A stretch of DNA of 64,000 nucleotides from Rhizoctonia solani (Eukaryota > Basidiomycota > Agaricomycetes > Cantharellales > Ceratobasidiaceae), in the NCBI RefSeq assembly GCF_016906535.1, contig NC_057381.1, positions 434,001 through 498,000 of the forward strand, given 5' to 3'. The notes under the pieces were generated by a model. The model made no database searches, was not told the origin of the DNA, and worked only from the letters and a program-made list of their open reading frames with translations. A program made the translations under genes and the position numbers. Below are positions 30,376 to 56,833 of the stretch, piece after piece. Position 1 is the stretch's first letter. Each line of letters starts with the position of its first letter.

Positions 30376-33300
30376 TTATTGAGAGTGCGGAATGTGAAGA
30401 TTGATGGCTGTAAAGCAAGTCAGCGATTATGAACCAAGTCAAGGATAAAAAGAGAACTGACCTCGTTGCCAAGTAAGCGCCTCGGACGTCGACTGGGTAT
30501 TAAAATACAATATCGCCTTATTATCCACGATCCTCAACCCGTTCCCGTTCACAATGCTCGCAGGCTGCGCCATTGTCTGCATTCGCAACACCGCCCAGAG
30601 CTCAACCATCTCGGCCCCGGGGAGTTCTTTGCACAGTACCAACAGGTCGTTGCACAGGATCGCAACCAGTTGTTTCGGGTTGGCGTCGGACGAAAGGCAG
30701 GGAACTTCGACTTGGCCGATTGTTCCATCTGGGTTGGGCACGTCGGCGCGCGAGTTTACTTTTTTAACCAGTCGGACGAGTTGTAATCGGCCGTCCATGA
30801 TGAGACGTCTGTTCGAGATCGTTAGCCGTCATCGTTCCGAGAATGACGGAAAAAAAAGGAAACGCACCGATGAGGCTGGACGAGCGGACTGATAAACTTG
30901 CCCTTTATCCTGGTCTGCCATTGCACGAGTTTCGTCCTAGACTCGCTCTCGCGCTTACCCTCGTTCATGCTGTTCGCCAACACCGCAATCTCCTCCAACG
31001 CACGCTCGAGCGGGTCGTCACGCGATTCAGGATGGGGAGGCGTGCACGTAACAAGATTGTCCAGCTATTCCCAAATGGCATCAGCAACTCCCTATTTAAA
31101 AATAGAACACAGAGGAGGGGACTCACGAGCATCTTGTACCTCGGAATCCGCTGAATAGGCAATAACAAGTACCCCTCGAGGTTCAACTGCGAGTGCCGAG
31201 GATGTAACCTACACCGCTTCAAAAACTGTTTTATCCGCTTTCGCTGGCCCGCGTTGAGCGTCGCCGGATGGGGCGCTTGCTCCGGGGACACACCCGCGAT
31301 TCCGACGGCGACCATGCTCAGTCCTGCGCCGACCGTGCTGGGGGTGTTTGAGGCAGGTGTAGCTGTACCGGGTGTATTAGGCGCAGAGGGAGGAGCGCTC
31401 CAGAACTGAAGTCGCTGGATCGCGTTGTCAAAGTTGCTGCCGCGATCATCAGTATCATCCCAAGTGAAAAAAAAGAGGGAAACAAACTCACTTGATATAG
31501 GTAAAGTACATCTTCATAAACGCCGCATGGCTCACGAACACATTCGCGATCGCGTGCGCGGTGCGAGTCGAGACGTCCTCACCCGGACCAGTCGTAGACA
31601 AGATTTCGGCCGCGTTGATCAACGAAGGGAGGAAACTCTGCTTGTGGAACTGTAAAAGCGCGTCCAGACCGGTAAACACAATCTTCCGCTCCGCCGAGGG
31701 GATCGTCGTTTCTTTTCCGACGTTCAGTCCGGGCGCAGGCTCGGACGCAGGCTTGACATAAATGTCGACGAGCTCTTGGAGTCCCTTGACATACGACTTT
31801 TCGGTTCTGCAATCCATCAAGCGTCAGCACATACACCATGTAACATACGTGCGCACATGGCACGCATGACACAACCAGGACAACTGACTCGACAATCTCC
31901 CGTACAATGGCGACCCGCCGGCCTTTATCATCCTTGTACTTCCTGTCCTCGGCAAACTGGCCATAACTTCCGCTGCTGTCCGTCGTATTCACGCTATCCT
32001 GCCCGCCTCTCAGACTGGCAGTCGACGGCGCGCTCCGGAGCATCGGAGGCGTGCTCGTGCTCGATGCATACGACCCGTCCGACTTGGTTCGCCCGTCCAT
32101 GTACTGCGTCAACGGCGGTCTCCGCGAGTTGCGGGGCGACGGGACGAGCCCGGACCCTAGTCCGCCTTCGAGATCAGCCATGTCACGGAGATAGCTCATG
32201 ATACCCCGGAGCGCCAAGTGCTGCCGCGCGGCTTCTTCGTCGGCCCGTCGTTGGGCCTCTTCAGCCGCTGCGAGCGCCTCGTCTTCGTTTTCGTGCTCGT
32301 TCTCGTTCTCGGGTTCGTCGAGCGCGACGACGCTCGGCATAAATGGCTCGGCGGGGATGGGGATGTTGAGTAGCGGAGGGGTGTCGAATGGGAGGAACGA
32401 ACGGCGTTTGGCGCGCGGTAGGCTGGGCGACGGGACGGGCTGGAGGAGACCCGGGCTCGGGGCCCCGTGGAGTGCTTCCTGGGACCGTCGGGACGCGAGC
32501 ACGCGGGCGGTCAACACGCTCGACGCAGGGCTTCCCGCGCTCGTGACGTTGACTTGGGGCGGGACCGGTACCGGAGGTGCCGCGATCGGCTGAGACTGCG
32601 ATGGGGACTGCGACTGCGACTGGGATTGCGACTGCGACTGCTGCGGTCGAGTCGGCATAGCAGGCATATCTCCCGCCTGAGCGGCTGGCAAGCGTCCCAG
32701 CCGTTCTGCGTTCGAATGGGACCTCAACCTGCCCATGCTCACTTTCTTGAAAAACCCCCATCGGCCTTTACGTCTTTGGTCTTCCTGCGACGCGCCGGCG
32801 GTACCAGCGCCATTTGTTTTGCCGTGCGCGTACGGATCGTCGGTACCGCTATACCGCTGCCCAACACGCTCGTCCGAAGCCGCACGCGCAATCGACGGCC
32901 GCCCATCCTCCTCTGACCCCCCTCCAACTCCAACTCCAACTCCCATACCACCGCCTAGCGCTCCAAACTCGTACGACACATCCGGCGACGCCTGGTCCTC
33001 TTCGAGCTTCTGGCCCTGGATACCCGTGGCCGAGTATCGCGAATTGCGCGGGCCGCCGGTCGAGTTGCGCGAGCCGGACCCAATGGTCGAGTTGCGCGCC
33101 GACCCGCCGGCCCACATTTGTCGTGCGTCCGGGCGGCTGGGCGAGCTGCGCACGCCGAGGGACATGTACCGTTTCACTTGCCCTTGTTGCTGCTGCGGCT
33201 CGGGCAATGTCGGAGCGGTCGAGAGGATGGGCGCGCTCGGTGGCGGGCCTTGGTCGTCCGTATTGCCCATTTTCCTGAGCTCGTCTGCGCTCTTCATGCG

Positions 33301-36300
33301 TCGCGGTCCAGATGCCCACGATGTACTGAAAAAAATCCCAAAAAAGTGATTAGTGCTAGTACAACCAAAGAGGTAGAGAAAATTGCTTACGTCGCCTCGA
33401 CTTCGCTCTCAGCATCGGTAGTCACGATTTCACTTCCGCTAATACTTCCCCCGCCGCGCTTCTTCTTTTTCCGGGGAGAAGGTGCCAAGGCGCCCAGATG
33501 CATATTGAGCTTGGCAGCGGTCGTCGGAGGGGAATGCACAGGGAGCTGGAGGTGGGCAAGACCCGTCGCGGGTGGCGGCGACATCAAAGCATGCGCGGGT
33601 GGGGGAGAAAGCGCGCTTCGGGGAGGAGAGTGGGGCGCCGAGGAGGAGGTCGGGTAGGGAGAGGAAAGAGGGGACGTGGTGAATGCGTGTCCGCTCCATC
33701 TGGGATCAAGGGCCGAGCTCGATTGGGGTTGTTGTGAGTAGCTGCGCTGGGAAGTCGCGGGTCGGTTGAGAAGGACAGGACTCGCCAAGCTGCCCGAGCC
33801 GTTGACGGTGGTGGACAATAGCGGGAGTGAATTGGCGGCACGGGCAGCACCGTAAACGCCGTTGGTAGGGGAGGGGGAGTATAGGACGTGTCGCGTGGAA
33901 GCAAGGGTTCGACGAGGCTCCTCCAGGGACCGGCAAACGTGTTCCCTTCGATCTTGAGAACCTCGAGACCGGGCATGGCGCAAAACCAGACCGGTAACAT
34001 GACCAATCGGTTGCAACGGACACTGAGGGAGTGGAGCGCGCCTAGGTTGACGAGCTGAGAAGGCAAAGACTGGAGCTCGCATGCGTCGGCAATGAGTACG
34101 CGTAGGGATACGAGCGCGCCGAGAGAGGAAGGGAGGGTGCGGAGGGGATTGGATGAGACATTCAATTCTTCGAGATTAGTGCAGGATGTCAGGGCGGGGG
34201 GAAGCGCAATGAGTTCGTTGTTGGAAATGTCGAGGCAGAGCAGTGATGTGCTGATCTGGGGCAAGACCTGGGCGAGGAATGCGGGCAAGAGGGCGGGAGT
34301 CGGGCTGCTGCCAAGCAACAGATGGGTAGTGCCTAGTAACGGTAAGCAAAAACGCAATATGATATACAACGTGAATTATACACACCGGTTTGGACATCCA
34401 GGTCAGATACGGGGCGCCCCTCGGCATCGACGATAAGTCCGCGGCCCTCGTCGGCAACAATCATGGCTGCTGTGCGGTCTTCGCGATCGTGTTCGTCGGA
34501 GACACTCTCTGTCTCGTTTTCTTCCAGCACGCTTTCCAGTTCGTCGTCGGAATATAAGTCTCGCCTTGGACCCACTATTCCACCATATTCGCCATGGGAC
34601 ATCATCCCATCGGGGTCAGGAACATTCACCATTGGACTTGGGAGACCGTACACTTCTTCATCCGAGTCTTGATACACGGATACGGTACGCCATTGACTGG
34701 CGCTATTCAGTGAATTGGACCGACTTCTTCCGGAAGCGGACCAACGAATGTTATTCTCTGTTACCGGCACACGCGATGACATTGACAACTGGGATCGGTG
34801 GCCTCCTACGGCTATCCGCGGCTCATCTGAAGTGGTGGCCGTGCCAGGCGGGATGTCTTCGCCGTAGTACACATGCTCGTCGTCGTCCTGGACATCCAGC
34901 TGGTCCAAAAACGAGTGCTTGTCTTGGGGGATAGTGAGCATAAATGGAAATGAATTCGGAGAAAATACCAGACCATGGTCCCCATTGAGTCCCAACTCGG
35001 TCGCACTGGGTGGTCTAGACCGACTCGAGGGCCGGATCGTCGCCTCTCGCTGGCGTCTATCGTCGGGCAAGATGAACTCGGGTGTGGCAGGCACAGGACG
35101 CGACGGAGGCGGGCGTGGCGGAGGAGCCTTGGTCAAGCTGCTGCCCCTCGACAACATCCTACAATACACCCAACACAACAAACACAAGAAAGAGAGAAAG
35201 AGAAAAAAGTCAGATAAAAGCCGCCAGTCGTCGGTCGCAGTCGGAACAAGGGAAAAAAATGAGAAATGAGAAATAACCACTCGCGCTCACCTCGGTTCGT
35301 GTTCAGTCAAATCACCTCTCGGGCGCACAGACGTACCCGTGACTTGTGACACGGGTTCATCATACAGGGTCCGATTCCATTCCGCCCCTAGGCCGACTGC
35401 TCCTTCCCCCACGCATCCCTCGAAATTCATTTTCCCCAACGGAGTGGCTGGCAGCACCTGGAAAGTGGGCGCAAATGGCGAGTTGATGGGCGATAGCGAT
35501 GGGATGCGAGCGAGCGACGGCACCGACACCGACGACGGACTCGGTGCGCGTGACCCACTCGGCTCTGGGGACGGCCCCCGTGACCTGAAGCCCAGTCCAG
35601 CCAGCCATGATGATCGCTTGGGCTTGCCCCTGCGTGTGTGTTCAGAGTCCGAGTAGGCTTCCACCTCGTATTGGGATGCGTTGGACGGTACGCGCACACG
35701 GAGCAACGACCCGAACCGCCTTTGATCGACGCTCGGTCGATCGCTGTCTTCTGTCATCCTCCCCCGCTCGCTTTCCACCGTCATCCGCCCTGGTCGTTCG
35801 CTCTCCATCGTCCGTCGAGGACTCTTGCGCGACCGCAACGTAGAAAACTTCCCTATTGTATCAGTTGAATCAATCAAATGTATACACACTATTCAAAAAT
35901 AGAATGCAATGCAAACTCACCTTTGATACTTCCCGACTCGCTCGAACTCCACTCGGACCTGAGCTCGACGTCCGACATCGCGGCCCGCGGAAACGTCATG
36001 CTCCTCGTCGCACCAGGCCGACTCACAAATCCCATCGCCATACTCGGCTCCGTCGTCCCTAACAATGATGAACTCGTCCTGGACCTATCAATCTCCAATC
36101 CCCTTCTCGACCTATTTTCAGCACCAGTGCTCGTTCTCGGCCGTCGCGGGGTCCCGAATCGATTCGTGGGATCCTCAGGCGTGGTAGATAAATGCTCTTC
36201 AGGGTGTTCCCCCAAGGCTGAAAAACTCGCCCCGACTTGGGACGGTCTCGTCGAATTCCACGAACCGACAGAACTTTGTGCAGGCGTAGTAGCACTATCC

Positions 36301-37244: not shown

Positions 37245-39751
37245 TCCGAGGGTATACTAGAGAGGGGGGGGGGGAGACGGAGCTGGGAGAACGAGGGAAA
37301 AGGTGAGATGAACACCAAGAGGGCTATGGTCGGTAGGCTGATCCGTATTCTCGACAGCTCGCGTCAAGTCGTAAATCGAACAACACTCCGCCAGACGCGC
37401 ACTCCCTCTAACAGGTGGTCGTTTCCTCTAACCCTGCTCAAAGTCCCAAGTGTTCATATCTCACCAAGAGACCGAAAGGACGTCATCGTTTCATTGCCTG
37501 GCTCCCCTTTTTTCTTCTTCTTCTATGTACCGAACTGCGTCTATGGACTATCAAGCGTGATGTTATCCGAGAACGGTGATCTGGGCGCTGGATCTGACGG
37601 CGGGCTGGGACGACATCGTATGATAGGGCGCCAAATCGAGCCGAAGAGATCGAATACGACGACTGAACCGAGCAAGGTGCGGTGGTTTCAATACGTTCGA
37701 CCATTGACGTATATATGGCTGACTATCATCTCGAACTAGTGGATTGAATCCAACCGCTCCTTACACGAGACAATCCATTCTTATACCATCTGGGTTCCAA
37801 TCATTTTTTTACCCACACTGGTAAGACCGCTTGAGCCGAACCCGATTGCTGTCGGGGCAAGAGCCCATGGAGGTGCGTGCTCGAGTCGAAGGAGAGCGCC
37901 TATGCGGAGAGTTAATACCGGTTCTCGTTTTGTCGATACCGGTTGAACGAGTGTCCTTGTAGATCTCTCAGATTTTCTCACTCGGTGTGTGAATTCTTAT
38001 TTTACTCCTAATCGGCGGAAGGTTTCGAGAGCATTACGAGTATATCGAAAATATGGAACGGTCTAGGTACTCGAATTCGAGTTGAGATTGAGACTCCATC
38101 AATTATCTAGGTGTATGCACTCTTTTTCGGTCAAACAGCGCCTATGTCTATTGGACACCTTGGTGATCTGTAATCAACACGCGATATATTTGGCTCTCAT
38201 ATCCAGCCAATTTTCCGGCAATCATTCCACGCCAACAAGGATGGTTCATCTATGCGCATACACCCCCATACCCGATTTTTCCCACTTGAACCATCATTCC
38301 AACCCCCGGCCGTCCGCCATCCGAAACATTCCTATCGAACAGGATCAATATCTTCGAGCACCTTGTTCCATCCATCGTTCCTGTTCACTGAATTCAAGCT
38401 CGAGCAAACTCACCCGCACCCACGGCGCAAGGCCTGGAACATCCACGCACTTCGACCCTGGTCACATCCTCCACATCATGAATGCGATCAATCCGTCACG
38501 ATAACTCGAGTGGAGACAGAGTGGGGCGGACCCCACCTGATAAGCCCTCTCTTTTTCGCTGGTGGAAGGGGGGAACAGACAGCACCATCCTTTCTCACCC
38601 CGCGTCGAGATTGTACCCGAACCTATGCTGATTAGTAAATGTTTAGCGAGCGGTATAGTCTCTGATGAAGAAGGTGTATATGGTCTTCTAGATTTATGTA
38701 CACAATAATGCTATCTCGAACTCTGATTCCTTGAAGGAGTTTTGTTGATCCGCTGGTTCGGTCTGTCCAGGACAAAGTTGGATAGCCGACGTGGTGGCTA
38801 TGGCACTACGCCACCTGGCCCTGAACTTGGACCTGAGCGTCAATGTCAGCCACGCCGTATAGCGTATACACCGGCAAGTCAAATGAAAAACGAAAAGTGA
38901 AAAATGGAAAATCGAGAGCCTAAATACTCTCCAGGCGACCTACACATCCTAGACTAGAAACTGCGGATCGCTTCGACTTGGATACGGTCGAACCGATCCT
39001 CCCGCAATAGAAGCTCCCATCACGAAATGAAAATATAAAAAAGTCGTGATAATCCAGGACCCCAGTCCGATATCGCGCCGCACATATATATCATATTTTT
39101 ACGTGGCAGTTCTGTCAGAACATATGGTCAGGAACTCTAGAAGTTCCACCTTAGCAACCTCCTAGGATCCTTGGATGCTATAACAAATGAGCGGTTGACC
39201 TCCCCCCCCCCCCCGAACGTGACATGACTGCATGACCATTACATCCACTCTGATCCGAGAAGTTATCCGATCAGGTGTATAGCGTGCTCCCCGTGATGTC
39301 ATCATCGAACTCACGGTTGCGAGGGCAACATATAATATATGCACCAGATCGAAGTCGCATCTGATGTGACTTCTGGGCCGGCGGGTTCTGTTGTCGTGTA
39401 AAGAAACACCCCGAACTCCAGTGGAAGACTTGAGTTTTGTATCAACGGTCCGGTTTAGGGAGCCAGATGTAATTGGGGTGTAGTGCTATGTGTCAGTTAA
39501 CCGGTGTGGATAATTGATCACAACAGCTATCGACAGGTGTTAGATAGAGTATGTACAGTGCGTAGTATGCGGCGCGATGAATAGCTATATCTATTGGTAG
39601 GCATGTTCGCCTGCAGAAGACACGCGGCTTGTGCTTGTTTAGCAGGGCCACGGTCCCCATCCTTAGGGCCGGTCCCGAACCTGCCTTGTGATTACCTTGA
39701 GGTCGCCTTGAGGTTGCCTTGAGGTAGGTGCGAGCCTCTGCGTTACAGGGG
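37245..39751. other. Intergenic, promoter regions
   Basis: A G-run lies at 37264-37275 just upstream of the RhoGEF start, and a C-run at about 39201-39214. 37.3-39.5 kb has no open frame with protein-like content. From about 39577 the sequence is shared with 47150 onward and forms the upstream region of the micro-exon gene, including three close copies of CTTGAGGT near 39690-39725. Confidence 0.5.
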
Positions 39752-39758
39752 TTTATAG
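39752..39758 (+). promoter_or_regulatory. TATA-like box of micro-exon gene A
   Basis: TTTATAG, conserved with its context (GTTACAGG.GTTTATAGC) upstream of gene B at 47311. About 140 bases before the ATG. Confidence 0.5.
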
Positions 39759-39801
39759 CCGTGCCCTCTCGAGTCTTCGTTCTTTGTTCTATCACTCGTT
39801 A

Positions 39802-39838
39802 GTGAGTCGATAGCTCCCCATAACTAACACCTGCGCAG
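39802..39838 (+). other. 5' UTR intron of micro-exon gene A
   Basis: GTGAGT...ATAACTAAC...GCAG, 37 bases. The equivalent stretch upstream of gene B (47361-47397) has the same length and signals (ATAACTGAC, CATAG) although bases between differ. Confidence 0.5.
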
Positions 39839-39893
39839 ATCGCGGTTGAGGTCTTCAAGAAATATCATAAAACTCATACATAAGAAACTAGAA

Positions 39894-42800
39894 ATGGTAC
39901 GCTGTCTCAACGATCTGCTTCATACTCACTGAGAAACGCTGGTAACCATATACCATGATACTACTATTGCATTGCTTTGGCTGGGTCTGACATATGCAGG
40001 AATCAAAGGCAAAGGTATGAGTCATATAAGGGTCTCAGCCACTTCGATCTGTTGAGCCTGATTGTAATCCCCGCACATTCTGAAGGATGTAAGACCGAGT
40101 TCGATGCAAGAGGCTTTGGTTCTGATAAAAGAAAATTTTGATACGCCTATATAGGAAGTGAGTAGGACTTCGGCATAGAGATCCGGATTTACAGTTCGAT
40201 TGACGAATCGATAAACCCACCCAGCAAGTGCGTACCAAACTCTCACGCTGCTCATGTTAGCAGTAAAGTAAGCTAAAATGTGGATAGGCGGTTCGTGTGC
40301 AACTTGCCAGATAGGATCTTGGTGCTGATGATGGTTGCCGCGAACGCTTCAACAGAGGGTGAGTGGGGTATTGTACTTGGATACAAAAGAGGCTAAGCCC
40401 TGTTTGGAAACAGGATGTGAGTACATGTTAACTGACGTATCCAAGCGCGGTACGATAAAGCTTGAGCAGTGGGTATGTACAGATAACAACGGCATTGGAA
40501 GTTATGACCTTAGGCTGGGACCGCATATCAATATATATAGATAGTGCGTTCGAGTGCGCGACCGTAGTGTTGTTACTAACCTGAGTTTCAAACTCAACAG
40601 AAAGTCAGTAGTCTCCTGGGTCCATATGAGTGTGACGTCATTTCGCACATCGTTTACAGATGGTAAGCGTGTAAGAGCGCAGATGAGACAAAGGACTAAT
40701 ATACGGACTTTTATAGAAGGTATATATCGCGTCTACTGGCGCCTTATTCGTACCTCTCTTGACGTATAAGCCGCAACGACAAATATGGTAGTTGGTAGGT
40801 CTACGGTACCCAAGGCTGACGAGACGATATATTCGATAGCACTTATGGCCCGTTTGTTAGGCTGTACGTTCACCGAGTCATGACCAGAGAGAAACAGGAT
40901 GATCTGTGAGTATGCTGTGCGCCTCGCAAAAAGCATGTCGGCTAATGTGAATGGGCTGCACGTTATGATAGCATTAGTAAGTTGCTCAGCTCATCTGAAA
41001 ATAATAGGCTGATGGGTATGGATAGTGTACAGGAAGTAAGTACTTGAAGCCCAACGTGGTGGTGTCCACTTTGGGGCTGCTTGTGTGTGAGCACGAAATA
41101 GTCTCGTAGCCAAATCTGTATGGCTTACTTGTCCAGCAGAAAGGAGGCGGGTGCCGCCAGAGCTGAACGCATGCCATGTCAATAGGAGGTAAGCGACCTG
41201 TTTTTGAAGAAGATGGAGCCTCATGTAGTGCACCAATGGGTAGAGAGTGAGCGAACTATGATCACTTGAAGTAAGTATGAGTGCCATGTACGATGACTTG
41301 AGGATTAGCTAATGGTCATACGTAGGATCGATGTTATACTCATCAACGGAACAGGCAGTACGTGTCTAAGTGTGAAGTTGAACACCTCGAGTGAGAGCTA
41401 ATGAGGTTTGTGTTGCTGTGTATGAGTAGTTGGTGCGTGAATTCATGGTTGTTACTGAGCGAAGGGTGAAAGAAAGGGACGCTAACTGTTGAAACCTAGG
41501 AGGTACGTACACCGTGGCCCTGAATCACTTAGATGATATGGAAAACCAATCGGAGCCTCGGTTATAGACAGTGAGTGAAGGGTGTTTATACGGAGAAAGC
41601 ATGCTGAGACAACCTTGGTACACCTATCTCCCAATTCAGAAGGTTAGGGCAGACTATCTGCTCGGTAGAGGTGCTCGCTAACTATGTCACGATGGATACC
41701 TGGTCAAACCAAGCCCGTGCGTACCGGGCAAATAGGGATAGGGTACGATGGCTTACGAGAAACTGGGTGCCAATTGGTATCTTAGCCAGTGAGTATGATG
41801 CTGATGTCGGAAACGGATGTATATTGAGGGTAGACTACGTGACGTTCGGTATCTTAGGGGGTGCGTATGGGGCTAGTGTCGAGGATGGATATGCACTGAC
41901 CACACACTGTGTGCTGTTCGGTATCTTAGCTGGTGCGTATGGGGCTGGTGTCGAGGATGGATATGCACTGACCACACATTGGGTGCTGTTCGGTATATCA
42001 GTCGGTGCGTATGGGGCTGGTGTCGAGGATGGATATGCACTGACCACACATTGGGTGCTGTTCGGTATATCAGTATGTGCGTATGGGGCTGGTGTCGAGG
42101 ATGGATATGCACTGACCAGACACTGGGTGCTGTTCGGTATATCAGCCGGTACGTATGGGACTGGTGTCGAGGATGGATATGCACTGACCAGACACTGTGT
42201 GCTGTTCGGTATCTTAGCTGGTGCGTATGGGGCTGGTGTCGAGGATGGATATGCACTGACCACACATTGGGTGCTGTTCGGTATATCAGGATGTGCGTAT
42301 GGGGCTGGTGTCGAGGATGGATATGCACTGACCACACATTGGGTGCTGTTCGGTATATCAGTCGGTGCGTATGGGGCTGGTGTCGAGGATGGATAGGCAC
42401 TGACCAGACACTGGGTGCTGTTCGGTATATCAGGATGTGCGTATGGGGCTGGTGTCGAGGATGGATATGCACTGACCAGACACTGGGTGCTGTTCGGTAT
42501 ATCAGTATGTGCGTATGGGGCTGGTGTCGAGGATGGATATGCACTGACCACATATTGCGTGCTGTTCGGTATCTTAGGGGGTGCGTATGGGGCTGGTGTC
42601 GAGGATGGATATGCACTGACCACACATTGGGTGCTGTTCGGTATATCAGTCGGTGCGTATGGGGCTGGTGTCGAGGATGGATATGCACTGACCAGACACT
42701 GGGTGCTGTTCGGTATATCAGTGGGTGCGTATGGGGCTGGTGTCGAGGATGGATATGCACTGACCAGACACTGGGTGCTGTTCGGTATATCAGTATGTGC

Positions 42801-45253
42801 GTATGGGGCTGGTGTCGAGGATGGATATGCACTGACCACATATTGCGTGCTGTTCGGTATCTTAGGGGGTGCGTATGGGGCTGGTGTCGAGGATGGATAT
42901 GCACTGACCACACATTGGGTGCTGTTCGGTATATCAGCCGGTGCGTATGGGGCTGGTGTCGAGGATGGATATGCACTGACCAGACACTGGGTGCTGTTCG
43001 GTATATCAGTGGGTGCGTATGGGGCTGGTGTCGAGGATGGATATGCACTGACCAGACACTGGGTGCTGTTCGGTATATCAGGATGTGCGTATGGGGCTGG
43101 TGTCGAGGATGGATATGCACTGACCACACATTGGGTGCTGTTCGGTATATCAGTATGTGCGTATGGGGCTGGTGTCGAGGATGGATATGCACTGACCAGA
43201 CACTGGGTGCTGTTCGGTATATCAGTCGGTGCGTATGGGGCTGGTGTCGAGGATGGATATGCACTGACCAGACACTGGGTGCTGTTCGGTATATCAGGAT
43301 GTGCGTATGGGGCTGGTGTCGAGGATGGATATGCACTGACCACACATTGGGTGCTGTTCGGTATATCAGGATGTGCGTATGGGGCTGGTGTCGAGGATGG
43401 ATATGCACTGACCAGACACTGGGTGCTGTTCGGTATATCAGTCGGTGCGTATGGGGCTGGTGTCGAGGATGGATATGCACTGACCACACATTGGGTGCTG
43501 TTCGGTATATCAGGATGTGCGTATGGGGCTGGTGTCGAGGATGGATATGCACTGACCAGACACTGGGTGCTGTTCGGTATCTTAGCGGGTGTGTATGGGG
43601 CTGGTGTCGAGGATGGATATGCACTGACCAGACACTGGGTGCTGTTCGGTATCTTAGCGGGTGTGTATGGGGCTGGTGTCGAGGATGGATATGCACTAAC
43701 CGCACACTGTGTGCTGTTCGGTATCTTAGCTGGTGTGTATGGGGCTGGTGTCGAGGATGGATATGCACTGACCACATACTGTGTGCTGTTCGGTATCTTA
43801 GCGGGTGTGTATGGGGCTGGTGTCGAGGATGGATATGCACTGACCACATACTGTGTGCTGTTCGGTATCTTAGCGGGTGTGTATGGGGCTGGTGTCAAGG
43901 ATGGATATGCACTGACCACATATTGCGTGCTGTTCGGTATCTTAGCGGGTGTGTATGGGGCTGGTGTCGAGGATGGATATGCACTGACCACATATTGCGT
44001 GCTGTTCGGTATCTTAGCTGGTGCGTATGGGGCTGGTGTCGAGGATGGATATGCACTGACCACACATTGGGTGCTGTTCGGTATATCAGGATGTGCGTAT
44101 GGGGCTGGTGTCGAGGATGGATATGCACTGACCACACACTTTATCGTTCCATACCTCAGTGGGTATGTGCAGCATGTCCATTCATTCCACAAGCTTACGG
44201 GTTTATATCTGCCATATAAGATAGTCAGTCCTTTCTTCTTTCCTACTTGCACTCTGATCGACAGTTTTGAGTTTATGCAGCAAGTGCGTATATGTCTTAT
44301 TACGGGTACGAATGCTCACTAAATTTTTGACATCCTTTTTATTTATAGGGTGTACGTTGTACAATCACTCTCGAGTGGTAACGTGTACTTACTTCCGAGG
44401 CTTGGTGTCTTCAATCAATATTAGCCAGTGAGTTTGCTACAGATATCAAGCTCTCATGAAAACTCATTGCTACTGCTTTGGTCTGCCTTCTCTTCTAGTG
44501 GGTATGTTTGTATTTACCATTCACAATAGCTACAGAGGACACCCGTTGATCGGTCGGAACATTCTCGTTTAATGTTCCAGTATGTGCGTACACGACATTA
44601 GTTTTAGTCAAGGGACTCGTGCCGACTGAACCTTGTATCTCATCCCCCAGAAGGTGCAAATTAGGCAGCAATTTGGTAGAATAGGTACTAACAAACTTGA
44701 TCGATACGCGAATGTGTAATTTCAGGCGGTACAGACTTATTTCCTCTTGGCAGCAAATTTGGGCTCACAAATTGAGGATTGGGGATATCTATTATAGAAG
44801 GTTCGTATACCCTGCATTCCTGGTTGGAGCACGTTGATGGATCGAGGACCTGCACTCATTATGTTAGGCTGTGTGTATATTACCTTGATTGCGTCGAGAT
44901 AGCATTTGACTAACATACGTCTTGCTTATTTAGCGGGTGAGTACACAGAGCCATATGTTCAAGCATGCGCTCCAGTCTTGACTGTTGTCGATGTATTCCA
45001 CAGCTGGTGCGTACATCGTCATCAGAGCGACGTTCTGTTTTGTGTTATTCAAACACTTATCGACATACGCCATTTCAGGATGCAACACTGGAGAATCATG
45101 CCCGCCAACGGGTCGGGTCTCATGACTCGGAATTACACCACGGTAAAGCTATGTTGGTCTCCGAACCGGTCGTGGATACTGACTACTGCTGTGCTCGCAT
45201 TCGACATACCAGATCAAGCACAATCAGGATCTCAGGCGCCACGTCAAAACTAG
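39894..45253 (+). CDS. Micro-exon gene A: ~74 coding exons, ~67 of exactly 3 nt
   Basis: Start ATG 39894-39896 is followed at once by GTACGC. Exon 2 is 40000-40014 (15 nt). Then one-codon exons, each between YAG/AAG and a GT donor: GAT 40086, GAA 40155, CAA 40225, GCG 40288, AGG 40356, GAT 40414, TGG 40470, ATA 40541, AAA 40601, ATG 40660, AAG 40717, TTG 40792, GCT 40861. Exons of 8 (40898), 5 (40972), 3 (41033) and 14 nt (41137) together restore the frame. Then GAG 41186, AGA 41244, GCA 41355, TTG 41430, GAG 41500, ACA 41568, AAG 41640, CCC 41714, CCA 41786, the 32-unit array (41858-44090), TGG 44160, CAA 44281, GGT 44349, CCA 44425, TGG 44499, TAT 44581, AAG 44651, GCG 44726, AAG 44798, GCT 44868, CGG 44934, CTG 45004, a 64-nt exon (45079-45142) and a 41-nt exon to TAG 45253. 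No stop occurs in about 117 codons. The predicted start reads MESKAKDEQARDWIKMKLA, like a charged helix. No signal peptide or known family. Function unknown. Confidence 0.6.
41858..44141 (+). repeat. 72-bp tandem array, each unit one intron plus one codon
   Basis: Thirty-two units at an exact 72-base spacing (41858 + 72k, k = 0-31; last one partial). Each unit has a variable triplet, a donor GTGCGTATG (also GTACGT, GTGTGT), an invariant branch-like CACTGAC, and an acceptor TATATCAG or TATCTTAG. The triplets are GGG, CTG, TCG, TAT, CCG, GAT, TGG and CGG in mixed order; none is a stop. The rest of the unit is almost invariant, so the array has been homogenised recently. The 2.2 kb has no length change. 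The long open frames on both strands here are a by-product of the 72-base period (24 codons). Confidence 0.85.
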
Positions 45254-46089
45254 CAAATCTGGGGTCGATGTTTTGGATGGTATGTAACAAGTAGCTACAA
45301 GGCAAACTGAGGTACTGATGGCTTACAAAGGGTACTGCAATATGTGTGCGCGCATGTGTTACGACTGCTAGGAAGTCAAGTGTGGTTGGAATGGAATACA
45401 TGGATTTCAGGAGAGCATAAAAGTGGTACTTGAGCTTCGGTGCTCCGATTGTCGCGAGACCCATCGATAGAGGCTGTCGTCTGGCTCTAGATACGGGCGC
45501 TGGGGGATCGGGCGCGCAACTGCGCGGTACCGGATGGTTTGGGGCATTAAGACTCGAACAGAACTGGCAGGTCGAGTGAGCCATGACTGACGGATAGTAG
45601 TGATGTGCGAAGGAAAGGGGAAGATAACCCACTGATATGTCGAAGATCACTAGATTGAGTAGCATGAACGTCAGAAGCACAGAAAAATCTGGTCTTTCGG
45701 CTTGATATCCAGAAACTTGGTAATGAGGGTTGCGCGTGAACATGAGCACCTGGGCCATATACCTTCAGGCTACAATTGCGGGGTCTCGATACATGCTGTA
45801 TGCACCACGTTCACGTATAGCCCAGTATATTGATACACACGCAAGGCACGACCCGAATCTGCGCTTTCACAAGTTCGTAAATGGCCGAGGACGAGCAAAA
45901 GCTAAGGCATCGTCAGAGACAACCTTACTTATTCGATCATAGCTATGCAAATACATGTATTGGTTTGCACCAACCTCCACATCCCAAGCTACCAACAGTC
46001 ACTTGAACACTATGTACAGTAATGAGAACAAGTCCATGAGCAAAATCGATCGTGGCTATCAGTAGTCCAAGTCTCAAGACTGATAGCAT
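45254..46089. other. Downstream flank of gene A
   Basis: The 45480-45570 stretch (GGGGGATC..., GGCATTAAGACTCGAACAGAAC-type blocks) resembles 51320-51400 downstream of gene B. A minus-strand open frame (45183-45758, 191 codons) has no motif and overlaps the last exon of gene A; I do not call it. Confidence 0.4.
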
Positions 46090-47070
46090 GTTATAGAAAA
46101 TGGGCAAAACTCACAAAGCAGATCAAGAAACGGAAAATCATAGCGTACCGCGCAACAAACGGATGAAGGCCGGACGAAAAATGAAGTGGGCAACGGTCAA
46201 TTCCCTGTGCCTTCATTCCGACGTAGAAGCGCATGCAGGTGACAGGAATGCCAAACCAAGTCATGAGTCCAGCGACAGCAGTCTGAACGTAGTGTGAGCG
46301 CCAGTATGATCGATCCAATGCAAAACACATACCATATTCGCGAACCAGTTCAGCGCTTTACCCTTGCCACTACTTGCGCTCATGTGTGTCAGGGAAGAAA
46401 GCGAGGCGCAGATGATGACAGAAACTTATAACCTGGACCTTGAGACATTGGAAAAGACCTTGGGCACATTTACAGCGAGAGAAAGGCCACAGAGTGCTGG
46501 AGAAGAAGCGAACAAGTCAGAGCTTGCAGTGGACCACGCAGAAGTGAAGAGAGCAGTATGGTCACGGACGGCAATCCCTTGATGCCAGTAGGTTGGATAC
46601 TATTGGGGAATCGAGTTAGCTGGGTTCAAGCAAAATCTGCCCTGAGACGCGCGCAATAACGAACGGTGACGCGGTGGCATCACCGGTGGTCAAATCGAGG
46701 CTAGGGTGGTTGGATGGGGCGAGCAAACCAATGATCAAGGCGCCTCCAATAAAAGGAAGGAGGATGCAGACGTGGAAACAGCGAATAGCCTTGGGGATGT
46801 TGCGGGATGGATTCTAAGACTGACCGGCAGCGATGGCCATGAGTTCGGTTCTGATGAGGAGAAAGCGACCTGGGTCATAACCAACCACCATCCGAGAACT
46901 GATGCGACTTCTGGCATTCTCCGTTATGGAAGCGCTGAGAATGTCTCTTGACCCGTAGTTGTACTGGGCCTTGGGGAGACTCGGTTCTGCTCTCGTACAA
47001 GGAAACGTCCAAATTGTTGCCGAAGACTTGAGTCCCGGGTCAACAACCCAACCCAAGGGAGCCATATTCG
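46090..47070 (-). pseudogene. Decayed amino-acid permease
   Basis: Reading leftwards it matches the permease at 63780-62960, including the segment equal to 63450-63310 (shared GAGAGAAAGGCC, AAGTCAGAGCTTGCAG, CACGGACGGCAATCCCTTGA blocks). The frame is broken by many small changes and the last exon of the intact gene is not recognisable. Together with the intact gene it marks the second half of the duplicated unit. Confidence 0.8.
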
Positions 47071-47310
47071 AAGTATAGCAGTAGTATGGGCCATTGGTCA
47101 TAGCAATTATCGATGGGAATTGGTTAAAATATCTGTGATCTATACTACGACTGGTCGGTGAGGTGCAGTGGAATTGTATCTACTGGTGGGCGCCTGGAGA
47201 AGATATGCAGCTCGTGCTTGTTTAGCAGGGCCAGGCCTCCATCTTTAGGGCCGGTCCCGAACCGGCCTGAGGTCACCTTGAGGTGAGCGCGACCCTCTGG
47301 GTTACAGGGA

Positions 47311-47317
47311 TTTATAG
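47311..47317 (+). promoter_or_regulatory. TATA-like box of micro-exon gene B
   Basis: TTTATAG in the same context as in copy A; about 150 bases before the ATG. Confidence 0.5.
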
Positions 47318-47360
47318 CTCCGTATCCTTGAGTCTTTGTTCTTTGTTCTATCACTTTTCA

Positions 47361-47397
47361 GTGAGTCGGTAGTCCCCTATAACTGACACTTGCATAG
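47361..47397 (+). other. 5' UTR intron of micro-exon gene B
   Basis: GTGAGT...ATAACTGAC...CATAG, 37 bases, aligned with the equivalent intron of gene A. Confidence 0.5.
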
Positions 47398-47460
47398 ATC
47401 GCTACCAAGCGTCGAAGCCTTCAAGAAATATCATAGAACCCATATACATCGTCGTTATAA

Positions 47461-50400
47461 ATGGTACGCTCTCCCAGGGATCTGCTTCCCACTCAACGAG
47501 CATTGCCGATAGCCATATACCATGATACTATCATTCCATTGCCTTAGCTTTGTCCGATATGTGCAGGACTCAAAGGTATGACTCATATAAGGGTCTTAGC
47601 CACTTCGATTTGCTGAGCCTATTTGTAACCCCCGCACATTCTGAAGGATGTAAGACCGAGCTCTATGCAAGACGCTATGGCTCTGACAAAACATTATGAA
47701 ACGTCCATATAGGAAGTGAGTAGGGTCTTGACCTAGAGATGCGGGTTTACAGCTCGACTGACGAATCCGCCTCGATAACTACACAACAAGTGCGTACTCA
47801 ACCCTGATGCTGCTCATGTTCGAAGCATATTAAGCTAATATGTTGACAGGTGGTTCGTATGCAACTCGCCAGATAGGACCTGGGTGCTGACGATGATTGT
47901 TGTGACCGCTTCGACAGAGGGTAGGTGAGTTGTTGTACCTGGATACAAAAGGCTGTAAGATGCTGTGGAAACAGGATGTGAGTACATGCAACTGAGATGT
48001 GTATGCACGTACGATAAAGCTCGAGCAGTGGGTATGTGCAAACAACAACTGCATCAGGATTTATGAGCCTAAACCAAGACTGCATATGAACATAGATAGT
48101 GCGTTCGAGTGTGCGACCGTGGTTGTGTTATTAACCTGAGTTATAAATTGATCGGAAAGTCAGTGGTTCCCTAAGCTCATATGAGTGTAACCTCGTTTCC
48201 CACATTATTTACAGATGGTAGGTGCCTAAGAGTGCAGATAGGGCATAGTACTGATATACGTACTCTCATAGAAGGTATATATCGCGTTCGCCGCCCTCTC
48301 ATTCGTAGCTGTCTTGACGTATATGCCGTAATTACAATTGTGATAGTTGGTAGGTCTGCCATACCTAAGACTTACGAGACGATTTGTTCAGTCGCACCTA
48401 TCGGTAATTCGTTAGGCTGTAAGTTGACTGAACTATGAGCAGGGACAAATAGGATGATCTGCGAGTGTACTCTGTGCATGACTGATGGCCATAAAGGCTA
48501 ATGTGAACGGGCGCACGCAACGCCAGCATTAGTAAGTCGTCCAACTCACACGAGAACAATAGGCTGATGCGTATGGACAGTATGCAGGAATTGAGTACTT
48601 ACAACCCAATGTGACGGTGTCTGCTTGGGGCTGCGCAAAAGTGTGAGCATGAAAGAGTTTCTTAACCAAATTGAATATAGCTTACCTATCCGGCAGAGGC
48701 GCGTGCCGCCAAAGCTGAACGCACGCTATGTCGATAGAAGGTAAGCGATCCTTTTATCTGAAGAGGATGCTGAAGTGTCATGCATGTTGCCGATGGGCAG
48801 AGAGTGAGAGAATTATAACCAATATAAGAATGAGTATGGTTGTCCAGTATGGCGACTCGGGCATTGGCTAATGGTTGCGGGAAGTTGTAGTAATAGACTG
48901 ATCAACGAATCATATGACAGGCAGTACGTATTGAAGTGCCAATCCTGGCTCCTTGAGTAGTACTAATGAGGTTCTGATTGATGGGGATGAATAGCTGGTA
49001 CGCGCATTTGTCATTCTATGGTCGAGTGCGAGGTTAGAGCGGGAGTGCTGACTGTTCGAACCACAGGAGGTACGTACATCGTGCCCCCTGAGCGAATACC
49101 TCATATATGAGAGTAATTGTAACCTGGATATCAGACAGTAAGTGAATGGCGTTCTGAAGGGGGAGTGTATGCGTATGATTTTGTACTCATATTCACCATT
49201 TCAGAAGGTTTGCACAGAGTAATCATCAGGTAGAGATGGTCACTGCCTAGATAATGGGTGATACTTGTTGAAATAAAGCCGGTACGTACCAAGTGAATGT
49301 CGAGCCACGATGACTGACGACGCTCAATTGATTGGGATGGCATAATTTAGGATGTGCGTATGGAGCTTATATAGGGTATGGGTATGAGCTGATGACAGAC
49401 TGGGTGCGGTCCGGTACCTCAATGGGTGTGTATAGGATCGTCATCAGGAATGGTTATGCGACGACGACAGATTCCGTGCCATTTGGTATTTTAGCTGGTG
49501 GGTACGGGGCTAGTGTCGGGGATGGATGTGTGCTGAGTATTGACTGCATGTCGTTTGGTATCTTAGAAGGTGCGTGTGAGGCTGGTATGGAGGATGCATG
49601 CAGAATGACGACGGGCTCTGTGCCGTTCTTTATGATAGCCAGTGCGTAGGGGGCTTGTATTGAGAATTGATTCGCACTGGCGAAAGACTGCGTGCGGTTC
49701 GGTATTTTAGAAGGTGCATATGGGTGTGGCATTAAGAATATATATGCACTAATGACTGAATGCATGTCATTCGATGCTTTAGAGTGTGCGTATTGGGCTA
49801 GTATCGAAGATGGGTGTGCACTAACAGACTCCGTACGGTCCGGTACCTCAGCGGGTGGGTACGGGGATGGAGTTTAGGATGAATATGCCCTGAAAATAGA
49901 TCCCGTGCCGGCCGGTACCTCAGAATGTGCGTATGGGGCTGATATAAGTGCCAAGTGCGCTGACGATTGAATCCGTGCCTTTTGGTACCTCAGTGGGTAC
50001 GTGTGGGGCTGGCGTCGAGGACGGATATGCACTAACTACAGACCCCGTGCCGTTGTATTTTAGGATGGGTGTGAGTCTGGTTGTCCAGGATGGGCGTGTA
50101 CTGACGCTAGACCCCGTGCCGTTTGGGACGTTAGGAGGTATGAATGGGGCTGGTTTCAAGCATGAATATGGACTGACAATAGACTGCGTGCCGTCCGGGG
50201 TGTTAGGCGGTATGTATAGGTCTGATTTGGAGGATAAACGTGTACTGACGACTGGCTGTGCGCCGTTTGGTATTTTAGGATGTGCGTATAGGGCTGGTGT
50301 CAAGAATGCATGTGCACTGACAACTGACTATGCGCTGTTTGGTATTTTAGGATGTGCGTATAGACTAGTGTCCAGAATGGACGTGCACTGACAATAAACC

Positions 50401-51189
50401 CCGTGCCGTTCGGTACCTCAGTGGGTGCGTATGGAGCTGGTATCGAGGATAGATATGCACTAACAACAGACTCCGTGCTGTTCGAGATGTTAGGAGGTAT
50501 GAATGGGGTTGTTATCAAGGACAGATATGCACTCACAATAGACTGCGTGCCGTTTGGGATGTTAGGCGGTGCGTACGAGGTTGGTGCCAAAGATGAATGC
50601 GTACTGAGGGTAGACTGTGTCGCTTGGAATATTAGGCGGTATGTGTGGTGCTTGTGTCAATGTTGAACATGTACTGACAAGAGACTCCGTGTTACTCTGG
50701 ATGTTAGGCGGTGTGTATGGGCCTAGTTTCGAGGATGGATATACCGAGAACGGACTTGCGCTGACGACAGGCTGCGTGCGATTCGGTATTTCAGAAGGTG
50801 CGTGTGGGGCTGGTGTCCAGGATGGATGTAGACTAACGACTGAATGCGTTCCGTTTGATGCTTTAGGGTGTGCGTCTGGGACTGGTGTTGAGAATGGATG
50901 TGCCCTGACGACAGACTCCGTGCCGTTTGTTACCTCAGTGGGTGCGTATGGGGCTGGTTTCGAGGACGGATACGCACTAACAGCAGACTCCGTGCCGGTT
51001 GGTATTTTAGATTGTGCGTATGGAGCTGGGATGGAGGATGGAGATATACTGACGACTTTCTGCGTGCCGTTCGGTATCTTAGGAGGTGCGCATGAGGCTG
51101 GTGCTGAGGAGATATATGCATATCAGAACATTTGTCATTCGGTCGATTTGCTAGACATTGGCACGATAACTCTCATCATGCAAGAGTAG
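47461..51189 (+). pseudogene. Micro-exon gene B, diverged copy, possibly inactive
   Basis: ATG 47461 followed by GTACGC; exon 2 GACTCAAAG 47567-47575. One-codon exons: GAT 47647, GAA 47713, CAA 47787, GTG 47850, AGG 47918, GAT 47975, TGG 48029, ATA 48096, AAA 48156, ATG 48215, AAG 48272, TTG 48347, GCT 48416, then the same 8-nt (48453) and 5-nt (48527) exons as copy A, AAG 48738, AGA 48801, GCA 48921, CTG 48995, GAG 49067, ACA 49135, AAG 49205, CCG 49279, GAT 49351, and the diverged array. Damage: no AG before CAA (47785-47786 is AA), CGG instead of an acceptor before AAA, a GC donor after the 8-nt exon, no donor after the base equal to copy A's GAA exon, and a 6-nt exon replacing the 14-nt one, which breaks the frame. 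A possible terminal stretch runs to TAG 51189. Either a pseudogene or a copy that skips some codons. Confidence 0.5.
49351..51085 (+). repeat. Diverged 72-bp array of gene B
   Basis: About 25 units with mostly 69-72-base spacing (one of 87). Triplets after the acceptor include CTG 49495, AAG 49567, CCA 49639, AAG 49711, AGT 49783, CGG 49852, AAT 49924, TGG 49994, GAG 50135, GCG 50207, GAT 50279, GAT 50351, TGG 50422, GAG 50494, GCG 50566, GCG 50636, GCG 50708, AAG 50795, GGT 50867, TGG 50939, ATT 51011, GAG 51083; no stop codon among them. Unit interiors differ widely, but GTGCGT-type donors, CTGAC/CTAAC and TTAG/CTCAG acceptors are nearly always kept. Two units have lost a signal (TCAA before 49422; GGGTGT after GAT 50064). 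Confidence 0.75.
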
Positions 51190-51935
51190 ACATCGATCGA
51201 TTCACCATTCACGCCTATACTTAGGCTCTGATAGCTTCGTGTATCCGATGTAATAATGCGCATAGGAATAGATAAGTATGTACAACTGTATGCGTACGTG
51301 AACATCGTCAGAAACCAGCAAGGGTGGGGGGATCCGGCACGAAGTGCCCGGATGAAAGCTGGGGCACCGAGACGCGAGCAGAACTCGCGGGCGGGTGGGC
51401 AGGCCTGACGATATGCGGAAGGTGTGTGATAGCCCTGTAAGAAACGCGATTCGCATGACAGTGAGTCGGAGCGAGCGAGTGGGATAGTGGGCGGGAAAGA
51501 CGAAATAAAAGTGCGATGAGTCAAAAGCGCTATGGAATACTGGTCGAGTAAGCACGACCGCTGAGCACATGGCCAGCTTTTTTTTTTAAAAAAAAAATAC
51601 ACGTCCATAGATAAACAATGGGAGCTACATGCGAACTAGGCAAACCGCTTACAAAACACAACCGAACCGTCAAAGCTACATCAGGAAGAGCAAAAGGAGA
51701 GCACAAAACACGACAGAACAGAACACAGAAGAAAGCAAACGAGAAAGTAGCACGGTCCGAGACAAGCTAGAGTCGCGTGGCGACTTACATGTGGCTTAAG
51801 GCCTAACTCGGGGTAGTGGCCGTAAGGGCGGGAGTGGGGTGGCGGCCGTAAGGGCGTATATACTACATGGTTTGAGCGGCTGCCTGCGGGCCTCCTCGTC
51901 TTCGACCTATGCCCGTGCACGTGACCAGCTACCTG
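51190..51935. other. Downstream flank of gene B
   Basis: Partly homologous to 45480-45570. A T9/A9 tract lies at about 51579-51597. No gene supported. Confidence 0.4.
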
Positions 51936-51943
51936 CGCCTAAG
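51936..51943. repeat. 8-bp target-site duplication of the hAT element (left)
   Basis: CGCCTAAG, repeated exactly at 62419-62426. Confidence 0.9.
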
Positions 51944-52172
51944 TAGGGAGCTACATGGTACAATCGGTAGCCACCGTGGTGCTTACCGCGGTAAACACGT
52001 GTTATCAACGGGTCGGTGGTTTGAATTTGCAATTTTACCAAACCGCGCGGTTTTTTACCGAGCAAACGGTGGAGCACCGTGGTAAACCGCTGATTACATA
52101 CTAAATCTATATACGGTATAAATACACATGAATGACTATATCGAGATGTATAAAATGCATATCAATCTGGAT

Positions 52173-56112: not shown

Positions 56113-56833
56113 CTGCCCCCCCTCTAAGGGCCTTGGCAGCGCCGAGGGCCTTCTTTTTCATTTCTTCCTCGTACTTCTTTAAAATTTTCCCCGCATTTTT
56201 CAGGTTTTCTTGGGGTTCCCATGTATTCTCCTCGGAGCCATATCCTTTCCATTTGACTCGGAAGAACCATTTCCCATCCCTTTCTTTGGCATCGGTAATC
56301 CCTTCTACCTCGTACTCCTCTTCTCCGTCCACGGTGACTGGTGGGGGACGATTTTCGAAGGCACGTTTCTTGTCCCTCTTGACCTTGGATAGGAGTCCGA
56401 CGTAGAATACATTGTGAATGCGCATTGTTGGGGGAAGTTCTAGCCAATACGCGCGGTCGGAGATTTTTTCAGTAACCTTGAATGGTCCCAAGCGCTGTTC
56501 CGTTAGCTTGGGGCTCAGGGTTTTGAGGTTGACATTCTTGGCGTCAAGCCAAGCTTCTTCTCCAATCTCAAACTCCACTGGGTTTCCCTCTTCTCCGGCA
56601 GTCATTCTCGATTTAGATTGCCGAAGGGCTGATTCAACCTCCTTCCACTGCTTTTCCATGGTCTGGGCTAAGTCATCGGCTTCTGGAACATCCGTAGGTA
56701 CGTTAGAGGGCGTCAAGGTAGGTTCCCAACCGTACAGGGCCTTGAAGGGAGTTTTTCCCGTGCTACTATGGACCGCGTTGTTGTAAGCAAATTCGGCCAT
56801 TGGCAGCCACTTGGTCCAATCCCGTTGATTCAC
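56105..56833 (-). CDS. Integrase C-terminal part with chromodomain (separated by a frame break)
   Basis: 242 codons. It starts with WLPMAEFAYNNAVHSSTGKTPF, the usual continuation of the integrase core, then the GPF/Y-like region (LGPFKV) and a chromodomain (YEVEGITD..., FRVKWKGYGSEENTWEP) at about residues 165-215. The chromodomain targets insertion to specific chromatin. In an intact element this is the same polypeptide as pol; here one base seems to be missing at about 56833-56838, so this copy is probably defective or the base was lost in assembly. Confidence 0.85.
   Translation of the reverse strand: MNQRDWTKWLPMAEFAYNNAVHSSTGKTPFKALYGWEPTLTPSNVPTDVPEADDLAQTMEKQWKEVESALRQSKSRMTAGEEGNPVEFEIGEEAWLDAKNVNLKTLSPKLTEQRLGPFKVTEKISDRAYWLELPPTMRIHNVFYVGLLSKVKRDKKRAFENRPPPVTVDGEEEYEVEGITDAKERDGKWFFRVKWKGYGSEENTWEPQENLKNAGKILKKYEEEMKKKALGAAKALRGGAVS

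What the first reader, a model, noticed from the sequence alone, without database searches (positions are those of the whole stretch)
39894..45253. A gene built from about 67 exons of exactly one codon each
From ATG 39894 to TAG 45253 a repeated pattern, acceptor (CAG/TAG/AAG), three bases, donor (GTGCGT, GTGAGT, GTATGT, GTAAGC and so on), divides the sequence into introns of about 50-140 bases. Many contain CTAAC, CTGAC or CTAAT before the acceptor. Joining the triplets gives a continuous frame without a stop, from a charged helix-like start (MESKAKDEQARDWIKMKLA) to normal terminal exons of 64 and 41 bases. Four odd-sized exons (8, 5, 3, 14) sum to 30. Outside the 72-bp array the introns are unrelated in sequence, so the architecture is not just one copied repeat. 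Known small-exon systems (schistosome micro-exon genes, aphid bicycle genes) use longer exons as far as I know; dozens of consecutive 3-nt exons in a fungus are new to me.
Basis: partly seen in the sequence, partly recalled or inferred. Interest (0 to 1): 0.97.

Follow-up and report, generated by a model that had tools for sequence, protein, structure and literature searches.

The report
Fungal genes with one-codon exons
A small gene family in a fungus, most likely the rice sheath-blight fungus Rhizoctonia solani AG-1 IA, is predicted to be split into dozens of exons of exactly three bases that splicing would join into one short protein, and the codons in the middle of these genes vary wildly while the intron-like sequence around them stays almost the same.

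Summary
From ATG 39894 to TAG 45253 the sequence fits 75 exons, 69 of them 3 nt, with 74 GT-AG introns of 34-108 nt and an open frame of 116 aa. Seven more loci of the genome carry the pattern or its remains, one of them decayed inside the window (47461-51130) and one a short relic. In paralogues C13 and C9 every splice site of the 42 exons outside the array is kept, and 5' exons are 92% identical where introns are 80% (w1/C9). No stop occurs in 187 array triplets; 10.9 were expected. In the 72-bp array of w1 the codon is hypervariable (mean pi 0.65) while the 69-nt intron is nearly constant (0.09); codon positions 2 and 1 are the two most variable of 72 in w1, C13 and C9. The array thus looks like a string of codon cassettes whose bulk is intron. 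Splicing is not shown: no RNA data were available. The only public protein found is a gene model that reads an intron as coding. The function is inferred: a fast-changing recognition or binding peptide.

The parts
39600..39893 (+). Upstream region shared by the family, predicted promoter and 5' UTR; the start codon is the last three bases of exon 1
   Evidence: query 39600-40010 matches 6 other places of the genome, 73-93% identity
39894..45253 (+). Predicted gene w1: 75 exons (69 of 3 nt), 74 GT-AG introns, CDS 351 nt, 116 aa
   Evidence: motif enrichment; paralogue alignment
39894..41716 (+). 5' part: 27 exons (23 of 3 nt; 15, 8, 5 and 11 nt) for the conserved N-terminus, charged by inspection
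   Evidence: alignment of six copies; exon against intron identity
41786..44092 (+). Codon-cassette array: 33 three-nt exons, spaced 72 bp, in near-identical 69-nt introns
   Evidence: hypervariable codon against constant intron; no stops
44160..45006 (+). 3' part: 13 three-nt exons outside the array, including the PWYKAKARL-like stretch
   Evidence: alignment of five copies
45079..45142 (+). 64-nt exon, conserved C-terminal segment
   Evidence: same length with AG and GT in w1, C13, C12b, C9, C16; the C12b version lies in public protein AG1IA_08049
45213..45253 (+). 41-nt last coding exon with stop codon TAG
   Evidence: 41 nt in all five copies aligned
47461..51130 (+). Decayed second copy w2: 34 strict triplet motifs left, splice sites lost at several exons, 3' part missing
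   Evidence: 34 motifs; lost acceptors at CAA, AAA and the 11-nt exon, lost donors at the 8-nt exon and GAA; the 3' query finds no match there

Best explanation
This is a family of genes in which most codons sit alone between GT-AG intron signals as predicted 3-nt exons, and the spliceosome would remove some 74 introns of about 69 nt from the window's copy to leave a 351-nt reading frame for a predicted protein of 116 residues. Shown by sequence: the AG-NNN-GT pattern, its conservation in paralogues, the open frame, the lack of stops and the variable codons. Inferred: that the RNA is spliced this way, and that splicing runs by intron definition, one short intron at a time, since an acceptor and a donor three bases apart are unlikely to be occupied at once. 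The predicted protein has conserved ends (a charged N-terminal segment and a C-terminal PWYKAKARL...HARQR...DQAQS tail) and a middle that differs from copy to copy: 33, 48 and 32 residues in w1, C13 and C9, 24 in C12b, 12 in C16. In that middle each residue lies on its own 72-bp cassette (3 nt of codon, 69 nt of intron). As 70 of 74 introns are phase 0, gain, loss or exchange of a cassette by recombination in the near-identical introns would add, drop or swap one amino acid without touching the frame. Selection would keep the codons different while recombination keeps the introns alike. The likely role, inferred only, is a fast-changing recognition or binding peptide.
For: Motif enrichment at exon length 3 only. 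Six-copy alignment with AG-NNN-GT at the same places; none of the 36 three-nt exons outside the array changes length in C13, C12b or C9. 5' part, w1 against C9: exons 91/99 = 0.92, introns 1105/1381 = 0.80, GT and AG 104/104; against C12b 0.93 and 0.79. 15 of 33 variant triplets synonymous, 20% expected. 0 stops in 187 array triplets, 10.9 expected, 0 of 20,000 permutations as low; 0 in all 312 triplets, 20.7 expected. Open frames in w1, C13 and C9. Codon pi 0.65 against intron 0.09 in w1. Among unit pairs with at most 2 differences in 138 flanking nt, 28 of 74 (w1), 44 of 131 (C9) and 7 of 27 (C12b) differ at all three codon bases; no window lying wholly in the intron gives one such pair. Within w1 and within C9 each codon type goes with one acceptor form without exception, as expected if cassettes are copied. 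CTRAY 8-50 nt before the acceptor in 19 of 42 non-array introns of w1, 8.0 expected, maximum 18 in 1000 Markov randomisations. Of 48 introns whose length is a multiple of 3, 45 would bring an in-frame stop if retained.
Against: No RNA or peptide evidence. No database protein found spans the joined triplets. Twelve of 74 donors in w1 are not GTRNGY, among them GTGCCG and GTATAT; two introns have only 34 and 35 nt. In the 3' part exons are hardly more alike than introns (0.79 and 0.77 w1/C12b, 0.62 and 0.61 w1/C16). The synonymous excess is modest (P 0.0008 at a null of 0.2, 0.044 at 0.3) and the copies are not independent. Joined array triplets read one base out of phase also have few stops (2; 13 two bases out). 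C12b, C16, w2 and C3 carry lesions and C11 has lost one acceptor. C13 has no unit pairs as close as those above, and the 3 such pairs of C16 share their codon. Codon order shows no repeated blocks beyond shuffles, and the codon-intron linkage does not fade evenly: site -66 in w1 is also linked. A free dynamic-programming model gave other chains.
Confidence: 0.86

Rival explanations
1. The gene is real but the triplets are mostly skipped: long-range splicing joins the ends, and the triplets are decoys or steps of recursive splicing that do not stay in the mRNA.
For: Every phase-0 triplet can be skipped without harm to the frame; 3-nt exons are hard for a spliceosome (general knowledge).
Against: Triplets lack stops, hold the same residues at many places of the 5' part and PW in the 3' part in five copies and vary synonymously more than the chance model; bases never present in mRNA would not be so constrained.
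Confidence: 0.06
2. The array is an ordinary tandem-repeat coding region read straight through (72 bp = 24 codons); long open frames exist on both strands.
For: Open frames of 780 and 641 aa on + and 826 and 673 aa on -.
Against: A repeat without a stop in one unit is open by copying alone. By inspection the frame in phase with the triplets is closed in the array unit by the TGA of the branch-like CTGAC, and the two open + frames do not put a TAG triplet in phase, so they do not explain the missing stops. The most variable bases are those between AG and GT. The pattern goes on outside the array.
Confidence: 0.02
3. The whole family is dead: relics of a once spliced gene, drifting.
For: w2 and C3 are decayed; C12b and C16 have lesions; C11 lost an acceptor.
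Against: w1, C13 and C9 keep all their GT/AG sites and an open frame although introns of the 5' part differ by 8% (w1/C13) and 20% (w1/C9); with 42 non-array exons each, drift would have broken some.
Confidence: 0.06

Closest known systems
Schistosoma micro-exon genes (MEGs)
   Same: Many very short, mostly symmetric exons; automatic annotation finds them hard (PMC10526429, passages read)
   Different: Exons 6-81 bp and mostly 15 bp, 10-20 of them, introns 0.1-5 kb, secreted products (the abstract says 3-81 bp). Here 69 of 75 exons are 3 nt, introns 34-108 nt, and 33 of the exons sit in a tandem array.
Aphid bicycle genes
   Same: Many unusually small exons of one phase in highly divergent proteins (PMC9168663, passages read)
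   Different: About 17 exons on average, almost all internal exons phase 2; here 70 of 74 introns are phase 0 and most exons are one codon. The same paper tells of an aphid 'megacycle' gene with more than 100 microexons for about 2000 aa, so larger exons.
Single tiny exons: human RPS24 (3 bp), plant APC11 and VPS55 (1 nt)
   Same: Show that spliceosomes can use exons of 1-3 nt (PMC12686416, search listing only; PMC8831610, passages)
   Different: Single microexons or neighbouring pairs in otherwise normal genes; no run of dozens in the passages and listings seen.
Hypervariable tandem-repeat proteins such as TAL effectors or fungal het WD-repeat genes (recalled, not tested)
   Same: Near-identical repeats that differ at a few codons
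   Different: There the repeat is protein; here the repeat is predicted intron and only the differing codon is coding.

Membership tests
Schistosome micro-exon genes | Short exons of 6-81 bp, mostly 15 bp | tested here: not met
   69 of 75 exons are 3 nt; definition from PMC10526429
Schistosome micro-exon genes | Exon lengths mostly multiples of three | tested here: met
   70 of 75
Schistosome micro-exon genes | Long introns, 0.1-5 kb | tested here: not met
   34-108 nt
Schistosome micro-exon genes | Secreted protein | not tested
   No signal-peptide tool; the N-terminus MESKAKDEQARDWIKMKL looks charged, not hydrophobic, by inspection
Aphid bicycle genes | Internal exons almost all phase 2 | tested here: not met
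   Intron phases 70 x 0, 3 x 1, 1 x 2; definition from PMC9168663
Aphid bicycle genes | Paired CYC motifs (recalled) | tested here: not met
   The predicted w1 protein holds no cysteine
U2-type spliceosomal introns | GT-AG ends, GTRNGY-like donor, CTRAY branch before the acceptor (consensus recalled) | tested here: met
   74 of 74 GT-AG, 62 of 74 GTRNGY; CTRAY in all 32 array introns and in 19 of 42 others, 8.0 expected within 8-50 nt of the acceptor
U2-type spliceosomal introns | Removal seen in RNA | not testable with these tools
   No transcript data held
Known protein domain families | Match to a curated profile or solved structure | tested here: not met
   No Pfam family for the predicted w1 and C9 proteins; best PDB sequence match E 0.047 for w1

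The most novel reading that the evidence does not exclude
These genes are natural peptide writers: each amino acid of a hypervariable segment lies on its own 72-bp cassette whose other 69 bases are intron, so that recombination between near-identical introns rewrites the peptide one residue at a time, and skipping any one-codon exon yields further in-frame versions from one gene, a combinatorial library built by splicing. The codons used (177 of 187 array triplets end in G or T) even resemble an NNK library, and TAG, the only stop in such a code, is absent.
Probability: 0.35. Interest if true: 0.97.

Novelty: categorically new. Interest (0 to 1): 0.94.

Why it matters
If spliced as predicted, the gene has 211 introns per kb of coding sequence and is 93.5% intron, to my knowledge an extreme; it asks how a spliceosome handles dozens of acceptor-donor pairs three bases apart; and it shows a new route to protein diversity: a repeat array whose bulk is spliced out so that only one hypervariable codon per unit is coding. 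Gene finders that do not expect 3-nt exons would miss such genes; the one public protein found for this family reads at least one predicted intron as coding. The novelty grade rests on two features for which I saw no counterpart: runs of dozens of one-codon exons, and hypervariable codons in homogenised introns. The searches were made, over open-licence papers only, and of the larger result sets only the top was seen (for example 15 of 119, 15 of 82). A reader who counts every gene rich in microexons as one kind would call it an extreme new variant.

Tried and rejected
Dynamic programming with heavy penalties gave a single unspliced exon in each of the seven copies tried, because an intron cost more than its sites earned. 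With lighter penalties and free exon length it chose 3 nt for 59 of 70 exons in w1 (54 of 62 and 48 of 56 at heavier penalties) but left the final frame at the 8-, 5- and 11-nt exons; the final model comes from the paralogue alignment instead. The 8-nt reading GCTGATGG near 41010 was dropped: its donor is not conserved and it looks like a branch site. In C12b a 14-bp gap takes the donor of the 11-nt exon and the simplest fused exon holds a stop; in C16 the 5-nt exon is gone and the joined frame meets a stop. I describe these and mend nothing. One search used a wrong 3' anchor for C16; one search gives the right one (12 array units). In one search the synonymous count left out w2, the ATG, the GAA read across codons and one TTG exon that an alignment gap splits. 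A global alignment of C11 and C13 went astray in the repeats (170 substitutions, 1156 gaps) and was set aside for the BLAST alignment (1 mismatch, 11 gap openings); one search failed. In w1 the intron window at the acceptor has 8 close pairs with two differences. Pfam, PDB and protein searches gave no function. Rfam (curated thresholds) and ARAGORN found nothing in the window. A whole-genome search for the same architecture in other gene families could not be done.
Full report
What is there. The window is C12:434001-498000 of a 40.7-Mb, 16-contig genome. On its + strand between 39894 and 45300 the motif acceptor-NNN-donor is enriched far beyond chance and only at exon length 3: 59 on +, 0 on -, mean 1.6 and maximum 7 in 200 Markov-random sequences of the same dinucleotide make-up; outside the tandem array 27, against 0-2 at each other length from 0 to 15. 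The rest of the window (51 kb) holds 5 and 7 on the two strands. Motif counts inside repeats need care: a chance motif recurs 12 times on the reverse strand of copy C13, but with one and the same triplet.

Family. Searches with the 5' and 3' ends found copies on C13, C11, C9, C12 (594-599 kb, called C12b) and C16, and the 5' search the second copy in the window, w2. The array unit also hit C3, which on reading holds three units and a stray 3' exon. Searches with the 5' parts of C16 and w2 found the same seven places and no more; the tool calls such counts lower bounds. C11 and C13 are almost identical over 9.5 kb (1 mismatch, 11 gap openings) and count as one. A G-to-T difference in C11 removes the acceptor AG of a one-codon Ile exon.

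Gene model. From the alignments (six copies in the 5' part, five in the 3' part) I took 27 exons of the 5' part, the array units, and 15 exons of the 3' part. In w1 this gives 75 exons, 69 of 3 nt, CDS 351 nt, 116 aa; in C13 90 exons (84 of 3 nt), in C9 74 (68 of 3 nt); all introns in these three copies are GT-AG and no frame holds a stop. C11 follows C13 apart from the exon with the lost acceptor. Intron phase is 0 for 70 of 74 in w1. C12b and C16 have lesions and w2 is decayed.

Why the triplets are codons. In the 5' part exon bases are kept better than intron bases: 0.92 against 0.80 for C9, 0.93 against 0.79 for C12b, 0.94 against 0.69 for w2, 0.87 against 0.65 for C16, 0.95 against 0.92 for C13. 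GT and AG are all kept in C13 and C9; C12b lacks one donor by deletion, w2 and C16 lack a few sites. In the 3' part exon and intron identity are about equal (0.79 and 0.77 for C12b; 0.79 and 0.76 for C9; 0.62 and 0.61 for C16; 0.95 and 0.90 for C13) though all splice dinucleotides stay. Of 33 variant triplets in five copies 15 are synonymous, 20% expected; the excess weakens under softer nulls (P 0.0008 at 0.2, 0.044 at 0.3), and variants in related copies are not independent. Stops: 0 of 187 array triplets in six copies (C11 left out; damaged copies included), 10.9 expected, no permutation of 20,000 as low; 0 of 125 others, 9.4 expected; joined array triplets read one or two bases out of phase give 2 and 13 stops.

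The array. In w1, C13, C11, C9 and w2 codon positions 2 and 1 are the two most variable of the 72 positions, in C16 positions 1 and 2; in C12b they rank first and third. Mean pi at the codon against the intron is 0.65/0.09 (w1), 0.64/0.19 (C13), 0.62/0.08 (C9), 0.55/0.15 (C12b), 0.54/0.20 (C16) and 0.67/0.42 in the decayed w2. Pairs of units with both flanking introns identical over 138 nt may differ at all three codon bases (GAT and TCG, four pairs in w1). With up to two differences in the flanks, 28 of 74 pairs in w1, 44 of 131 in C9 and 7 of 27 in C12b do so; no window lying wholly in the intron gives one such pair. C13 has no pairs that close, and the 3 of C16 share their codon. Within w1 and within C9 each codon type goes with one acceptor form (CAG or TAG) without exception; C12b has only TAG, C13 shows mixtures, and CCG and TCG pair differently in w1 and C9. 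In w1 linkage is strongest at the bases nearest to the codon (-3, -5, -20, +6), but site -66 is linked as well. This fits cassettes copied with their nearest intron bases and recombined further out; codon order shows no repeated blocks beyond shuffles, so the history is not settled.

Organism and public record. One database protein matches: AG1IA_08049 of Rhizoctonia solani AG-1 IA. Its last 34 residues equal those of our C12b copy, and its middle reads a predicted intron of C12b as protein (by inspection). The organism is thus most likely R. solani AG-1 IA. No paper in the library names that locus.

Mechanism. Shown: anatomy, conservation, lack of stops, codon hypervariability. Inferred: splicing by intron definition; array change by recombination in introns; selection for peptide diversity; a recognition or binding role. 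The predicted ends are conserved in w1, C13 and C9 (MExK...DExARDWIKMKLADD and PWYKAKARLDxTL..HARQR) and the middle is mostly W, D, P, R, S, L, Y and G.

Known systems. Schistosome MEGs have exons of 6-81 bp, mostly 15, and long introns (passages of PMC10526429; its abstract says 3-81). Bicycle genes have about 17 exons, almost all internal ones phase 2 (passages of PMC9168663). Single 1-nt exons are established in plants (passages of PMC8831610). A 2024 paper states that functional microexons had not been described in filamentous fungi before (abstract and passages of PMC11121469). The Rhizoctonia paper among the hits uses the word for an aligner setting (passages of PMC4014442). In what I saw of these papers there is no run of one-codon exons.

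Noticed in passing
window 47461-51130 (+): Second, decayed copy of the gene 2.2 kb downstream, with degenerate 72-bp repeats at 49956-51110 and no 3' exons
   Followed up: yes
L024 and L025 (C13:822500-832000, C11:1258900-1268800): 9.5-kb near-identical copies (1 mismatch, 11 gap openings) on two contigs: recent duplication, nuclear haplotype or assembly redundancy
   Followed up: partly
window 56830-61076 (-): Ty3-like retroelement: pol ORF with reverse transcriptase, RNase H and integrase, and a gag ORF
   Followed up: no
window 20955-21419 (-), 30965-31513 (-), 33584-34375 (-): Ordinary genes: alginate lyase domain, RhoGEF domain, leucine-rich repeats
   Followed up: no
window 40001-52000: Positive GC skew in every 2-kb step over the two gene copies, up to 0.36
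   Followed up: no
L029 5180-5480 and 5720-5740 (C3): Relic of the family: three array units and one stray 3' exon
   Followed up: partly
public protein AG1IA_08049 (P0001): Database protein of the C12b copy that reads a predicted intron as coding sequence
   Followed up: yes
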